Of a DNA stretch of 64,000 nt, positions 25,944-43,456 are shown in pieces. This stretch comes from a methanogenic archaeon ISO4-H5 (GTDB lineage Archaea > Thermoplasmatota > Thermoplasmata > Methanomassiliicoccales > Methanomethylophilaceae). Made by a program: the position numbers and the translations under genes. Numbering within the stretch: the first letter of the stretch is position 1; each line of letters opens with the position of its first letter. The stretch lies in the NCBI GenBank assembly GCA_001560915.1, contig CP014214.1, positions 868,001 through 932,000 on the forward strand. Direction: 5' to 3'. Below the pieces are notes generated by a model, which did not search any database, was not told the origin of the DNA, and saw only the letters and a program-made list of their open reading frames with translations.

Positions 25944-26246
25944 TCATTCGATGGTCTCGAGATAGAATGAAACTGGTCTGAAGCCGTCGTCGCAACTAAT
26001 CATGGCTGAATGGGGGTCCTTCATCCATCTGTCGAAGAAGTCTCCTCCGCCCTCCGCCAGGGTTCTGACATAGTTTTCCATCACCCTCCATGCGGGTTCG
26101 CAGAGACCTTCCGGTTTCTTTGCTTCATGCGACACGAATACCATTCCGACCTTCATGTCGCAGGCGTGCTCTATCGGGTTCTCATATTTTTCCATCAGAT
26201 CCCTGTGCTCGCATTTACGCATGATAGTGATCTTGACGTCTTTCAT
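25944..26246 (-). CDS. TIGR04076 family protein
   Basis: A 100-residue protein: MKDVKITIMRKCEHRDLMEKY, CDMKVGMVFVS, LCEPAWRVMENYVRTLAEGG, ISCDDGFRPVSFYLE. The pattern of cysteines and the C-x-DG-RPV ending match TIGR04076, small proteins of unknown function common in anaerobes. A close paralogue with a damaged C-terminus lies at 27575-27883, on the far side of the tandem RNA array. The gene ends in TGA. Confidence 0.85.
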   Translation of the reverse strand: MKDVKITIMRKCEHRDLMEKYENPIEHACDMKVGMVFVSHEAKKPEGLCEPAWRVMENYVRTLAEGGGDFFDRWMKDPHSAMISCDDGFRPVSFYLETIE

Positions 26247-26333: not shown

Positions 26334-26633
26334 TTATGTGCTGAAAAATGACCCCAAAAACTCTGCCAGAGCAGATTTGAGCTCCTTTTTCGATGGTTTT
26401 TCATACGTTTTTTCAGCCAGCCGGAAGTATCCCATGAGCGACTCACAGATCGCTTCCCTGTTTGCCTGCAGGTTGTCCATCAGATCCATTATCGAATCCT
26501 CGGTGATCCTTTCGCTCTCGATTTTGAATTCTTCGTAGAGCATAACCGCCGCTTCGTACATGGTGCGGTTGCGGTCGCTGACGAGACCGTTCTTCCCGAG
26601 GTTCCCTGCAATCAGCGATAGCCGGAAGAAGAT
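26334..26633 (-). pseudogene. fragment of an unidentified helical protein
   Basis: The frame reads GKNGLVSDRNRTMYEAAVMLY and continues through a helical, charged region to SALAEFLGSFFST and TAA. Upstream the frame is open to an ATG at 26678, but that part is antisense to another coding-like fragment. The N-terminus is therefore probably lost. I do not recognise the family. Confidence 0.4.
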
Positions 26634-26756
26634 GGTATCGTGAGATGCTGGACCAAAGAGGACGGTTACAGATCGCACATGGTCGAGCTCACTGGCATCG
26701 GGAAGGATATCGGACCGCTGATGAACGAAGTTTTAGATCTTATCAAGAAGAATTGA
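26622..26756 (+). pseudogene. C-terminal fragment of an unidentified protein, left of the RNA array
   Basis: The plus strand encodes PEEDGIVRCWTKEDGYRSHM and then VELTGIGKDIGPLMNEVLDL before a TGA at 26754-26756. The composition is protein-like but there is no start and the upstream sequence belongs to another fragment. It ends six bases before the first RNA unit, so it may mark a recombination point. Confidence 0.35.
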
Positions 26757-26761
26757 AAGCA

Positions 26762-26866
26762 GGCGGACGGGTAAATGAAACACCTATTTCCCCGTCCGCC
26801 GAAGGTGAGAAAGGGTGCCTGCAATCCCTCAAACGATCTGTCCCCGAGACTGCAGCGGAAGGGGAC
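26762..26866 (+). ncRNA. structured RNA unit 1 (double-pseudoknot fold)
   Basis: P1: ggcggacgg (26762-26770) with ccgtccgcc (26792-26800). The P1 loop cacc (26781-26784) can pair with ggtg (26814-26817), giving a first pseudoknot. The second pseudoknot is ctgcaat (26819-26825) with actgcag (26849-26855, one A-C mismatch), and gtcccc (26840-26845) with ggggac (26861-26866). Unlike the other units, it has only a weak TATA-like ttttagatctta upstream. Confidence 0.6.
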
Positions 26867-26928
26867 AGTTTAAAAAGCCCATGTCCGCTTATATAAATGA
26901 CCACGAAAAATCGTTGTTTTGTAAAGTG

Positions 26929-27033
26929 GGCGGACGGTAGCATATGACACCGTTTTCGCCGTCCGCCTGTGAGGCCGAAAGGGTGCCTGCAACCCCTGAA
27001 TACCGAAGTCCCCGAGATTGCAGAAAAGGGGAC
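26929..27033 (+). ncRNA. structured RNA unit 2 (double-pseudoknot fold)
   Basis: P1: 26929-26937 with 26959-26967. Loop cacc (26948-26951) with ggtg (26982-26985). ctgcaac (26987-26993) with attgcag (27017-27023). gtcccc (27008-27013) with ggggac (27028-27033). A TATA-like ttatataaa lies at 26889-26897, about 36 bases upstream of P1. Confidence 0.6.
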
Positions 27034-27096
27034 GGCATAGTATCCCCCTGTTTGCATAAAAATCTGTCCGCGAAAGATCATAATCAGTTAAAAGTA

Positions 27097-27201
27097 GGCG
27101 GACGGCCTCATGAAACACCGTTTTCGCCGTCCGCCGAAGGTGAGAAAAGGTGCCCGTAATCCCAATTACAACCCGTCCCCGAGATTACAGTGGAAGGGGA
27201 C
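27097..27201 (+). ncRNA. structured RNA unit 3 (double-pseudoknot fold)
   Basis: P1: 27097-27105 with 27127-27135. Loop cacc (27116-27119) with ggtg (27149-27152). gtaat (27156-27160) with attac (27184-27188), a compensatory change relative to gcaat/attgc in other units. gtcccc (27175-27180) with ggggac (27196-27201). A TATA-like cataaaaa lies at 27055-27062. Confidence 0.6.
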
Positions 27202-27265
27202 GGATTAGTAACTCCTGTGTCTGCTTAAATATCTGTCCGCGAAAGATTATAATCAGGTGAAAGTG

Positions 27266-27371
27266 GGCGGACGACAGCGAATGACACCGTTTTCACCGTC
27301 CGCCAAGGAAAGAAAAGGTGCCCTGCAATCCCAATATACGCAATGTCCTCAAGATTGCAGCCGAAGAGGAC
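27266..27371 (+). ncRNA. structured RNA unit 4 (double-pseudoknot fold)
   Basis: P1: 27266-27274 with 27296-27304 (terminal pair lost). Loop cacc (27285-27288) with ggtg (27317-27320). ctgcaat (27323-27329) with attgcag (27354-27360). gtcctc (27345-27350) with gaggac (27366-27371), a compensatory C-T / G-A change. A TATA-like cttaaatat lies at 27224-27232. Confidence 0.6.
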
Positions 27372-27444
27372 AAATTGGTATCCCCCTGTTCGCATAAATA
27401 TCTGTCCGCGGAAGATCCTGCTACAACGGGTATGGAAAGAAGTT

Positions 27445-27550
27445 GCCGGACGGCCCACGATCAATGCCTTGGCAGCCGTCCGGCGAAGGAGGTTACAGGC
27501 ACCCCGCAATCCCTAAAGTCCATGTCCCCGAGATTGCGGTTTTAGGGGAC
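27445..27550 (+). ncRNA. structured RNA unit 5 (double-pseudoknot fold, most divergent)
   Basis: P1: gccggacgg (27445-27453) with ccgtccggc (27476-27484), a compensated pair compared with units 1-4. Loop tgcct (27465-27469) with aggca (27497-27501), replacing cacc/ggtg. ccgcaat (27504-27510) with attgcgg (27532-27538), compensated. gtcccc (27524-27529) with ggggac (27545-27550). A TATA-like cataaatat lies at 27393-27401. Confidence 0.6.
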
Positions 27551-27574
27551 AGTCACTCAATCGTGTCTTTGGTT

Positions 27575-27883
27575 TTAATAGGTATCGAATGAGGGCCTGC
27601 GGGAGGATTGATCGTAAACCCGACGGTGCCGGACACGCTTTCCCCATACTCGAAATACTGACGATATCTCGAAGAAGTTGCCTCCGCAGTTGGCCAGCTC
27701 GGACACACATTTTCTTATTACGGACCAAGCGGGGTCACACATGCCGTCCGGTTTCTCTGCATTCTTCGAGACGAAACTGAACCCCACCTTCATATCGCAG
27801 GCATGCTCGATAGGATTCTCGTAGAGTTCTATGAGGTCCTTGTGTTCGCAGATGCGCATTACGGTGATCTTGACATCTTTCAC
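27575..27883 (-). pseudogene. second TIGR04076 family copy with aberrant C-terminus
   Basis: The first 70 residues (MKDVKITVMRICEHKDLIELY, CDMKVGFSFVS, MCDPAWSVIRKCVSELANCG) are a clear paralogue of the gene at 25944-26246. After GGNFFE the sequence no longer matches: the conserved C-x-DG-RPVSF ending is replaced by basic sequence ending RRPSFDTY and TAA. Another frame ends in KTKDTIE and TGA, like the paralogue's ETIE. A frameshift or recombination at the edge of the RNA array is likely. It overlaps the Rpn remnant by four bases. Confidence 0.6.
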
Positions 27884-28264: not shown

Positions 28265-28342
28265 CGTGTTTCTGCAGATTTTTCGTACAAAACGACCGTG
28301 TTTCTGCAGATTTTTCGTACAAAACGACCGTGTTTCTGCAGG
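28265..28342 (+). repeat. 32-bp direct repeats in front of the DUF4143 ATPase promoter
   Basis: Two perfect 32-base units start at 28265 and 28297 (cgtgtttctgcag, then tttttcgtacaaaacgac), and a 13-base partial third starts at 28329. Each full unit contains the inverted pair tcgt-acaaa-acga. The third copy runs directly into a TATA box (ttatatata, 28343-28351), and the ATG follows at 28373. The position fits an operator for that gene. Confidence 0.8.
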
Positions 28343-30788: not shown

Positions 30789-32078
30789 TCACCTCTTCCT
30801 CAGGAGGAAGAACGCTCCGCCGATGAGTGCGATGGCGGCGACCGCACCGCCCGCGGCGATGTAGAGGAGGGTGCTGTCGTTACTGCCGCCGGGCTTTCCT
30901 GTGGCCGGGATGTCCTGCACGTCCTTGGTGTCGGAATAGGTGAAGTCGTCGTAGGTCCCGGAGACGGAATAGGCGGTGGTACCCATCTCGGTCTCCGTCG
31001 GGGGGATCTTGACCGTATGGGCGACGTCCGGATGTTCCTGATGGTTCTCGGTATCACCGTGGGAGCATGCAATGTCCACCGTGCAGGCCGAACCGTCATT
31101 AGCCCAAGTGTATGTGGCGGAATAGTCATGAATCAGGAAAAGATTGTCTTCGTCCACATTCTGAGAAATCCCCCCGTTGTTCACACTGTCATTTGCAGTG
31201 ATTCCCAGAGGGTTGTTGCACGGGATGTAAAGCGTTGTGAGTGAATTGCATCCTTGGAAAGCATAGGTTCCGATGGATGTTACCGAGTCAGGGACGGTCA
31301 CGGATGCGAGCGATGAACAATAACGGAACGCAGACTCCCCGACGGATGTGACCGAGTCGGGGATGGTCACGGATGCGAGCGATGAACAATCGAAGAACGC
31401 GCTATCCCCGATGGATGTTACCGAGTCGGAGATGGTCACGGATGCGAGCGATGAACAACCGTAGAACGCAATCTCCCCGATGGATGTTACCGAGTCGGGG
31501 ATGATCACGGATGCGAGCGATGAACAACGGTAGAACACACCATATCCGATGGATGTTACCGAGTCGGGGATGGTCACGGATTCGAGCAGTTCACAATATT
31601 CGAACGCAAGATTCCCAATGGTGGTGACCGAATCAGGGATGGTCACGGATGCGAGCGATGCACAATGATTGAATGCACCGTTCCCGAGGGATGTTACCGA
31701 ATCAGGGATGGTCACGGATGCGAGCGATGCACAATAACGGAACGCATCCGCCTTGATGGATGTTACCGAGTCGGGGATGGTCACGGATTCGAGCGATGAA
31801 CAATAGTAGAACGCTAACTCCCCGATATTGGTAAGTCCGTCGGGCAGAATCACCGAGTTGCAATCCTTCCATCCGCGTTCATCGGTGATGGTATAATCCC
31901 ACATGTCGCCGGATCCCGTGAAGGTGACACATTTATCAGAATCCATGCTCCAGTACAGGTTGTCACCGCATTGGCCAGAAGCGGGATCTGCGTCCGAGCC
32001 GTCCGCGTCGCAGATCATGAACACGCATACCACTGCCAGCACTGCAGAAACCACCATTAAGGTCCAGCGGAAGCTCAT
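30789..32078 (-). CDS. BspA-like leucine-rich-repeat surface protein
   Basis: 429 residues. N-terminal signal MSFRWTLMVVSAVLAVVCVF, then about nine near-identical 23-residue LRR_5 repeats (AFxxCSSLASVTIPDSVTSIG). A C-terminal ectodomain DYSATYTWANDGSACTVDIA...DIPATG is shared with the gene at 561-1973. A membrane helix and LLRKR tail end the protein. It should be anchored in the cytoplasmic membrane and exposed outside. The high identity between repeats points to recent repeat expansion. It ends in TGA. Confidence 0.92.
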   Translation of the reverse strand: MSFRWTLMVVSAVLAVVCVFMICDADGSDADPASGQCGDNLYWSMDSDKCVTFTGSGDMWDYTITDERGWKDCNSVILPDGLTNIGELAFYYCSSLESVTIPDSVTSIKADAFRYCASLASVTIPDSVTSLGNGAFNHCASLASVTIPDSVTTIGNLAFEYCELLESVTIPDSVTSIGYGVFYRCSSLASVIIPDSVTSIGEIAFYGCSSLASVTISDSVTSIGDSAFFDCSSLASVTIPDSVTSVGESAFRYCSSLASVTVPDSVTSIGTYAFQGCNSLTTLYIPCNNPLGITANDSVNNGGISQNVDEDNLFLIHDYSATYTWANDGSACTVDIACSHGDTENHQEHPDVAHTVKIPPTETEMGTTAYSVSGTYDDFTYSDTKDVQDIPATGKPGGSNDSTLLYIAAGGAVAAIALIGGAFFLLRKR

Positions 32079-40082: not shown

Positions 40083-40922
40083 GTGCGACGTGCAAAGCAG
40101 TAAGGAGGATTGTGAAAAGCAAAGAAACAAGCGAAGTAACCGTGGGATTCGTCCCCCACCGACCCTACCAGGGCATGCGTCCCGAGCAATCGGAAGGTGT
40201 GAAGCCCCTGGGACAAAGCGGAAAGACGCAGGATTCGATGTATCGAACCGCCAGGGTGAATCGGGCATGGTGAATGTAACGTGAACTGTTGTAAGGGCCG
40301 TGACTTCACAACATGCGAAAACGAATCTGACCTGCGAGGGAGAACGCATGGACCAAAACGGTACGGAACAAGGTCCGGATGTGTACTTGAGCATCCGGAC
40401 GGACGGACAGATGTTCCCGGCCTAAAGACGGCACCTAACCCCGATGCAGTATCCCAATTGCTGAACACGGCAACCCCGTTATCCTCCCGAAAGGGTACCG
40501 ACTCCGCAAGGACGAAGGAAGGGACAGCGGGCGAAGGAGGTGGCAAGAAGCGAAAGCCGTCACGTAATATGACGGATAGGCGCTCGTGCGCCAATCCGAA
40601 AGGATGCAGACGTGCCACTGGTCGACAATCGAAGGAGAATCGTGCATGACATCAACTGCTGATACCTCAACGGCGCCGAAAGGCGAGAGGTCAGCGGACG
40701 CTGTCCGCCGCCCAAGCGAATGGGGATCCATCGACTGGAGGAAAGCGGAGGCACAGGTCGGACGTATGCAGGAAAGGATTTCGAAGGTTTACGGCGAAGG
40801 AGTTTCGCCATGTGAACCGCCCAGTGAAACAGGGTTATTGTCGGCTCGAGCCGCATGAGGGGAAACTCTCACGTACGGTTCCAAGAGGAGGACTCCCCCG
40901 TGAGGGGGAGCCCTTACTCGAC
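40083..40922 (+). mobile_element. group II intron with deleted reverse transcriptase
   Basis: The 5' end is gtgcgacg (40083), matching the GUGYG consensus; gtgtg at 40081 is an alternative. Domain V is the 34-base hairpin at 40848-40881: gagccgcatgagg-ggaaa-ctctcacgtacggttc with the AGC triad, GAAA-type loop and the AC bulge region. Domain VI follows (ggactcccccgtgagggggag), with a bulged A just before ttactcgac at the 3' end near 40922. Between lie ribozyme-like GC-rich helices and a remnant of the reverse transcriptase gene. At about 840 bases it is far shorter than an intact 2-3 kb element. Confidence 0.85.
40646..40858 (+). pseudogene. N-terminal remnant of the group II intron reverse transcriptase/maturase
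   Basis: GGAG precedes an ATG that gives MTSTADTSTAPKGERSADAV, then PSEWGSIDWRKAEAQVGRMQ, ERISKVYGEG. This is the typical start of intron-encoded RTs (W-IDW-KAE-QV-R-Q-RI). After GEG the frame runs into domain IV/V sequence and stops. All polymerase, maturase and endonuclease domains are deleted, so mobility would need a helper RT in trans. Confidence 0.8.
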
Positions 40923-43341: not shown

Positions 43342-43456
43342 AACCGTTTTTTTACGTCTTATTTAGCGGGTTTGAACCGTTTTTTTACGGGTATTTTTGA
43401 GGAATTGAACCGTTTTTTTACGTCTATTTAGCGGGTTTGAACCGTTTTTTTTACGG
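43342..43456 (-). repeat. 33-bp spaced repeats in front of the second DUF4143 ATPase
   Basis: Four copies of aaccgtttttttacg start near 43342, 43375, 43408 and 43440, separated by related spacers (tatttagcgggtttg). On the minus (coding) strand each copy reads cgtaaaaaaacggtt with a ccgt/acgg inverted pair. The array ends directly upstream of the TATA-like box of the ATPase gene. The sequence differs from the array at 28265, but layout and period are the same. Confidence 0.8.

What the first reader, a model, noticed from the sequence alone, without database searches (positions are those of the whole stretch)
26762..27550. Unrecognised tandem RNA: five copies, each able to form two consecutive pseudoknots
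Each 105-106 base unit has strands in the order a-b-a'-b' twice. P1 (ggcggacgg/ccgtccgcc) has a loop segment cacc that pairs with ggtg after P1. Then ctgcaat / gtcccc / attgcag / ggggac interleave as a second H-type pseudoknot. Compensatory changes between units support several helices: unit 5 P1 gccgg/ccggc; unit 5 loop helix tgcct/aggca instead of cacc/ggtg; unit 3 gtaat/attac; unit 5 ccgcaat/attgcgg; unit 4 gtcctc/gaggac. No coding frame explains the conservation. I know no archaeal RNA family with this layout.
Basis: seen in the sequence. Interest (0 to 1): 0.92.

Follow-up and report, generated by a model that had tools for sequence, protein, structure and literature searches.

The report
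Tandem double-pseudoknot RNA genes in methanogen
A rumen methane-producing archaeon carries two clusters of short, non-coding, pseudoknotted RNA genes of a family seen nowhere else in our searches; they most likely run on the strand opposite to the one first proposed, each with its own promoter, like the multicopy regulatory small RNAs of bacteria.

Summary
Five units (26762-27552) and a second array of three complete units plus one truncated unit 138 kb away (86% identity) share four helices in a-b-a'-b' order, twice. Read on the MINUS strand: (i) each unit has a TATA box 31-33 nt before helix P4, near the spacing of this genome's own tRNA promoters; seven of eight score p<0.03, and the plus strand shows no consistent signal; (ii) the internal P1/P3 mismatches seen on plus are all A.C, which is G.U on minus, so P3 pairs in all 8 units; (iii) the GC-rich P1 hairpin ends the unit and is followed by a short T-rich tract; (iv) loop lengths suit H-type pseudoknots better. 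P2 pairs with the ggtg just before P3, not the one right after P1, and is longer than stated. No Rfam, phage, plasmid, viral-contig or genome-collection homologue was found. Best reading: a lineage-restricted multicopy regulatory sRNA family, arranged like Listeria LhrC1-5. Transcription, pseudoknot folding and targets are untested. The genome matches strain ISO4-H5 (Methanomassiliicoccales).

The parts
26762..26866 (-). RNA gene unit W1 (5' end at 26866, P1 hairpin ends 26762; T-rich tract continues to about 26750)
   Evidence: repeat unit; structure; TATA at -32, p=0.0019
26929..27033 (-). RNA gene unit W2 (closest to S1 of second array, 6% different)
   Evidence: (TATA p=0.0052)
27097..27201 (-). 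RNA gene unit W3
   Evidence: TATA p=0.016
27266..27371 (-). RNA gene unit W4 (P4 compensatory GTCCTC/GAGGAC)
   Evidence: TATA p=0.016
27445..27550 (-). RNA gene unit W5, most diverged (P1 GCCGG.., P2 GGTGCC/GGCATT, P3 CCGCAATC/GATTGCGG)
   Evidence: weak TATA, p=0.11
26890..26898 (-). TATA box of W1 (ATTTATATA)
   Evidence: weight matrix from 32 stable-RNA promoters of the same genome
27057..27065 (-). TATA box of W2 (AGATTTTTA)
   Evidence: rank about 7 of 128,000 window positions with the 12-nt matrix
27226..27234 (-). TATA box of W3 (AGATATTTA)
27395..27403 (-). TATA box of W4 (AGATATTTA)
27573..27581 (-). weak TATA-like box of W5 (CTATTAAAA)
27064..27078 (-). element ATCTTTCGCGGACAG directly upstream of and abutting the TATA box (also 27233-27247 and 27402-27416; degenerate before W1)
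   Evidence: exact copies in the genome occur only in the two arrays; four inspected near-matches lie in coding sequence

Best explanation
The locus is a tandem array of five short non-coding RNA genes on the minus strand, each a complete transcription unit: array-specific upstream element, TATA box, start at about the first G of GTCCCC, an RNA of about 105-118 nt, and a GC-rich hairpin plus short T-rich tract as 3' end. Order in the RNA: P4 5' (GUCCCC), P3 5' (CUGCAAUC), P4 3', P3 3', P2 5' (GGCACC), pyrimidine-rich loop, P1 5' (GGCGGACGG), P2 3' (GGUGUC), P1 3'. This allows two consecutive H-type pseudoknots. A diverged second array on the plus strand 138 kb away carries three complete units and one truncated one. 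Most likely the copies act together as a multicopy trans-acting regulatory sRNA: the pseudoknots protect and present the RNA, copy number sets dose, and the exposed pyrimidine-rich loop between P2 and P1 (UCUCACCUUC, ACCUCCUUC, UUUCUUUCCUU; 83% pyrimidine over 8 units) pairs with purine-rich Shine-Dalgarno regions of target mRNAs. Shown by computation: repeats, second locus, four helices with compensatory changes, TATA boxes at promoter spacing, lack of coding, lack of detectable homologues. Inferred: minus strand as the transcribed one (strongly), pseudoknot formation (moderately), sRNA function and target pairing (weakly).
For: Second array, 86% identical over 563 nt; all 8 complete units score 94-111 bits with the plus-strand model and 100-119 bits with the minus-strand model, though the models were built from them. 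Minus-strand TATA boxes at -31 to -33 in all 8 units, where this genome's stable RNA genes mostly have theirs at -33 to -37; 7 of 8 p<0.03 (first seen). Strand asymmetry: on minus 221 Watson-Crick, 17 G.U and 2 A.C cells; the four internal non-Watson-Crick cells of P1 and P3 are all G.U. P3 pairs in 8/8 units and can extend to 10 bp. Loop lengths on minus: 4-5 nt across the deep groove of P3 and 12-14 nt across the shallow groove of P4; on plus the shallow-groove loop would be only about 5 nt for an 8-bp P3. P1 is followed by ACTTTTA, ACTTTAC or AACTTCTTT in nearly all units, and homology between units stops there at the end of each array. Pyrimidine-rich P2-P1 loop, 86/104, against 42/103 in the P4-P3 loop. 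Precedents: LhrC1-5, five 111-114 nt sRNAs, four clustered and one distant, whose CU-rich motifs bind ribosome-binding sites (PMC12101431); sRNA162 of Methanosarcina mazei masks a ribosome-binding site with a single-stranded linker (PMC3510493).
Against: No expression data. Only 8 units from one genome, so covariation rests on few, partly dependent changes, and the units' TATA p-values are not independent. The strict terminator scan found nothing, and the T tracts are short. MFE z-scores do not favour minus clearly: -2.1 to -3.9 for five plus-strand units, -1.2 to -4.6 for eight minus-strand units. Complements of the loop are not enriched in the genome (60 hits against 61 for the control), so target pairing has no independent support. 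W5 has a weak TATA box.
Confidence: 0.6

Rival explanations
1. Structured RNA on the minus strand that binds and titrates or scaffolds a protein (as CsrB/CsrC-type RNAs do), with the repeated units as binding sites, rather than pairing with mRNAs.
For: High structure, conserved helices with variable loops and multiplicity fit a protein-binding RNA; the complement of the loop shows no enrichment in the genome.
Against: No candidate protein partner is linked: the DUF4143 ATPase near each array is one of 15 in the genome. Separate promoters per unit fit separate transcripts better than one multi-site sponge.
Confidence: 0.22
2. Plus-strand RNA as first proposed.
For: The helices pair on both strands and minimum-energy folding of the plus strand is good.
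Against: No consistent promoter at a fixed position; first units W1 and S1 lack the linker upstream on plus; A.C mismatches in P1 and P3; short shallow-groove loop.
Confidence: 0.06
3. DNA-level repeat: mobile-element debris or protein-binding iterons whose palindromes merely resemble RNA structure.
For: Tandem, duplicated to a second site, species-restricted; the array lies next to a truncated TIGR04076 paralogue.
Against: Interleaved (non-palindromic) helix order, compensatory changes in all four helices, G.U asymmetry of one strand, and TATA boxes at constant spacing are not expected of DNA cruciforms or iterons.
Confidence: 0.1
4. Cis-acting leader (riboswitch or attenuator) of the downstream gene.
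For: In the second array the RNA strand is the same as that of the DUF4143 gene about 138 nt downstream; competing P1/P2 and P3/P4 helices could switch.
Against: Downstream genes differ between the loci (an unknown 114-aa ORF in the window), each unit has its own TATA box, and the DUF4143 gene has its own tandem repeats upstream.
Confidence: 0.05
5. Antitoxin RNA of a type III toxin-antitoxin system (ToxI-like repeats).
For: Tandem repeats with H-type pseudoknots.
Against: Known ToxI repeats are much shorter and form one transcript upstream of a toxin gene (own knowledge); the ORFs next to both arrays are a GNAT acetyltransferase, TIGR04076, CbiX, DUF4143 or unknown.
Confidence: 0.02

Closest known systems
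LhrC1-5 sRNAs of Listeria monocytogenes
   Same: Five sibling sRNA genes of 111-114 nt, most in one cluster and one elsewhere; CU-rich motifs (PMC12101431).
   Different: Bacterial; regulation by LisRK; the units here have pseudoknot-type pairing and lie in an archaeon; targets unknown.
sRNA162 of Methanosarcina mazei
   Same: Methanogen sRNA of narrow phylogenetic range with stem-loops around a single-stranded linker that masks a ribosome-binding site (PMC3510493).
   Different: Described there as one sRNA with stem-loops; no tandem array or pseudoknot architecture reported in the passages read.
Type III antitoxin RNAs (ToxI)
   Same: Tandem repeats, H-type pseudoknot per repeat (own knowledge).
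   Different: No toxin gene recognised next to either array; unit 167-179 bp with its own promoter; two pseudoknots per unit.
GA-cis RNA (RF02987)
   Same: Only Rfam hit at all in the array.
   Different: 16.7 bits, E=1.6, on the plus strand, far below the gathering score of 34.7: chance.

Membership tests
Any Rfam 15 family | covariance-model score at or above gathering threshold, either strand | tested here: not met
Multicopy trans-acting sRNA (LhrC-like kind) | several short sibling units with own promoter each | tested here: met
   5 + 3 complete units, TATA box at fixed spacing in each, weak in W5
Multicopy trans-acting sRNA (LhrC-like kind) | discrete short transcripts | not testable with these tools
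   no RNA-seq on hand
Multicopy trans-acting sRNA (LhrC-like kind) | unpaired motif complementary to leaders of target mRNAs | tested here: inconclusive
   83% pyrimidine loop, but complement hits not enriched over control
Type III antitoxin RNA | linked ToxN/CptN/TenpN-type endoRNase gene | tested here: not met
   no such family in the flanking ORFs scanned, some of which match nothing
Type III antitoxin RNA | short tandem repeats in one transcript | tested here: not met
   units are 167-179 bp apart with a TATA box in each linker
HDV-like ribozyme | nested double pseudoknot with P3 hairpin between the P2 5' and P1 3' strands | tested here: not met
   only 2 nt lie between the corresponding strands in P4/P3 on the minus strand; no Rfam hit
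CRISPR array | short near-identical repeats with unique spacers | tested here: not met
   units 6-40% different, linkers also homologous; the genome's own CRISPR lies at 1.15 Mb
H-type double pseudoknot RNA | both interleaved helices conserved with compensatory change | tested here: met
   P2 covariation rests on units W5 and S3 only
H-type double pseudoknot RNA | both helices form simultaneously | not testable with these tools
   needs chemical probing or a structure

The most novel reading that the evidence does not exclude
A new class of archaeal structured RNA: compact double-pseudoknot RNAs of about 110 nt, dosed by tandem gene copies, working in trans as a stand-alone ligand- or protein-binding device rather than as an antisense sRNA, and confined to one methanogen lineage.
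Probability: 0.2. Interest if true: 0.8.

Novelty: new variant of a known kind. Interest (0 to 1): 0.55.

Why it matters
Our full-text searches turned up no described small RNA of Methanomassiliicoccales, the methyl-reducing methanogens of the rumen and gut. A multicopy, individually promoted, pseudoknotted sRNA family in an archaeon would be an archaeal counterpart of bacterial sibling-sRNA clusters, and its apparent strain specificity makes it a test case for how new structured RNAs arise. The finding is directly testable by one strand-specific small-RNA library.

Tried and rejected
DNA search of 60 related genomes: only two weak order-level matches, in coding sequence. Plus-strand CM over 147 genomes of the order: best foreign hits are coding sequence or a plain convergent GGCGGACGG hairpin in G124. 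Minus-strand CM over the order (147), 400 genomes of the class and 390 of the phylum: the borderline hits inspected (E 0.001-0.08) look like chance matches, nearly all in coding sequence; none besides the own genome in the phylum sample at E<=0.001. Pattern scans of genome contigs and viral contigs gave 2 and 1 isolated hits, judged chance; the P1-only pattern in viral contigs gave 80 unrelated hairpins. Plasmids and phages: none. Target search by loop complement: no enrichment. The upstream element as a genome-wide regulon: four near-matches checked, all coding. Comparing the second locus in the genus through CbiX: homologues only 22-37% identical, not used for synteny. Link to DUF4143: 15 copies in the genome, so proximity is weak evidence.

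Full report
What was checked. The window is G000:C1:868001-932000 of a single-contig genome of 1,937,883 bp. The published chromosome of methanogenic archaeon ISO4-H5 (Methanomassiliicoccales) has 1,937,882 bp and one CRISPR with 35 repeats at 1,153,894-1,155,995 (PMC5011839); the same kind of repeat array sits there in this genome. The window is therefore from ISO4-H5 or a near-identical assembly.

The observation. Five units start at 26762, 26929, 27097, 27266 and 27445 on the plus strand. The structured part is 104-108 nt and the rest of each 167-179 bp period is a linker. A second array lies at 756291-756873, opposite strand, 86% identical over 563 nt, with three complete units (S1-S3) and one reduced to its P1 hairpin. 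W2 and S1 differ by only 6% while other pairs of units differ by about 16-40%, so a block of units was copied between loci and then diverged. The four helices give 92.5% paired cells and six pairs with both sides changed on the plus-strand alignment, against 1.8 +/- 1.0 in shuffles, none of 500 as high. On the minus-strand alignment the figures are 95.7%, five pairs against 1.3 +/- 0.9, none of 500 as high; the covariation scores were reached by 2/500 shuffles on either strand. No open frame is shared by the units on either strand.

Which strand. A weight matrix trained on 32 stable-RNA promoters of this genome (30 tRNA loci, the window tRNA and SRP RNA) places TATA boxes on the minus strand of the linkers. 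Measured from the first G of GTCCCC, the best box starts at -31 to -33 in all eight units; the genome's stable RNA genes mostly have theirs at -33 to -37. Seven of eight units score p<0.03 against random window positions; W5 is weak, p=0.11. These units are related, so the p-values are not independent. On the plus strand no consistent box is found, and first units W1 and S1 do not carry the linker upstream at all. Independently, the four internal mismatches of P1 and P3 on the plus strand (W1, W2, W3 in P3; W4 in P1) are A.C and become G.U on minus; overall the minus strand has 17 G.U and 2 A.C cells, the two A.C at the last pair of P1, many of the G.U at shared positions of P2. On minus, P3 pairs in 8 of 8 sequences and can extend to 10 bp. 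Loop lengths on minus (4-5 nt across P3's deep groove, 12-14 nt across P4's shallow groove) suit an H-type pseudoknot; on plus the shallow-groove loop would be about 5 nt (geometric rule from own knowledge). P1 ends the unit on minus and is followed by ACTTTTA, ACTTTAC or AACTTCTTT in most units; between-unit homology ends there in both arrays. The strict terminator scan is negative.

Structure refinements. P2 is GGCACC..TTTTC with GAAAA.CGGTGTC: duplex folding of the two segments gives 10-11 bp in W4, S2 and S3 (4, 0 and 0 of 500 shuffles as good), 13-48 of 500 in W1, W2, W3 and S1, and not better than shuffles in W5. W5 keeps the helix with TGCC/GGCA in place of CACC/GGTG. The ggtg directly after P1 on the plus strand is not the conserved partner. 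Nested minimum-energy folds choose P4 or P3, and P1 or P2, differently from unit to unit, as expected if the pairs are pseudoknot partners or alternatives; strands overlap by at most one base, at the P3/P2 border, so both can form.

Relatives. Nothing in Rfam 15, phages or plasmids, 84,980 species genomes or viral contigs by pattern (the three hits were judged chance). Covariance models on both strands found only this genome among 147 genomes of the order, and the minus-strand model only this genome among 400 sampled from the class and 390 from the phylum; borderline matches inspected look like chance, nearly all in coding sequence. The screens over 40 genomes use stricter filters and one genome per species, so close strains or diverged relatives could be missed.

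Function. Each unit looks like a full transcription unit. The closest working model is a multicopy regulatory sRNA, as LhrC1-5, with dose set by copy number. The P2-P1 loop is 83% pyrimidine, against 41% in the P4-P3 loop, and includes UCACCUUC (W1, W3, S2) and ACCUCCUUC (W5), close to the anti-Shine-Dalgarno sequence (own knowledge); an archaeal precedent for masking a ribosome-binding site exists. A genome scan with the loop's complement showed no enrichment (60 hits against 61 for the reversed control), so targets remain unknown, and protein binding is a serious rival. Neighbouring genes give no clear partner: TIGR04076 paralogues (one truncated), a GNAT acetyltransferase, CbiX and AAA_14/DUF4143 ATPases; DUF4143 has 15 copies in the genome.

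Verdict. Real feature, probably wrong strand, genuinely unassigned RNA family. I put about 0.85 on a minus-strand non-coding RNA, 0.65 on pseudoknots forming, and 0.35 on mRNA pairing as the main mode of action; these are judgements, not computed values.

Noticed in passing
window 28265-28341 and 43342-43451; L002:2095-2162; L201-L214: About 11-12 of the 15 DUF4143/AAA_14 ATPase genes of this genome are preceded, shortly before the start codon, by 2-4 near-perfect direct repeats of period 23 or 32-34 bp whose sequence is private to each gene. They look like helically phased operators, perhaps for autoregulation.
   Followed up: partly
window 25944-26246 and 27575-27883: Two TIGR04076 paralogues flank the RNA array; the second matches only the first two thirds of the family and continues in an unrelated frame, so it may be a pseudogene.
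   Followed up: partly
L215 (G000:C1:1153700-1156200): The repeats of the CRISPR array vary inside the hairpin (CCCCACGCATGTGGGG, CCCCATATGCGTGGGG, CCCCACGTAGGTGGGG), which seems unusually degenerate for one array.
   Followed up: no
L007 (G124:C4 about 26596-26666): A related genome has an intergenic hairpin GGCGGACGGC..GCCGTCCGCC with the same stem as P1 and a further GGCGGACGGC nearby, without the rest of the unit.
   Followed up: partly
window 40141-40922: Group II intron domains detected on the plus strand.
   Followed up: no
window 31270-31826 and 1090-1408: 69-bp tandem repeats; those at 31270-31826 lie in a leucine-rich-repeat-like (BspA-like by eye) ORF at 30789-32078 on the minus strand.
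   Followed up: no
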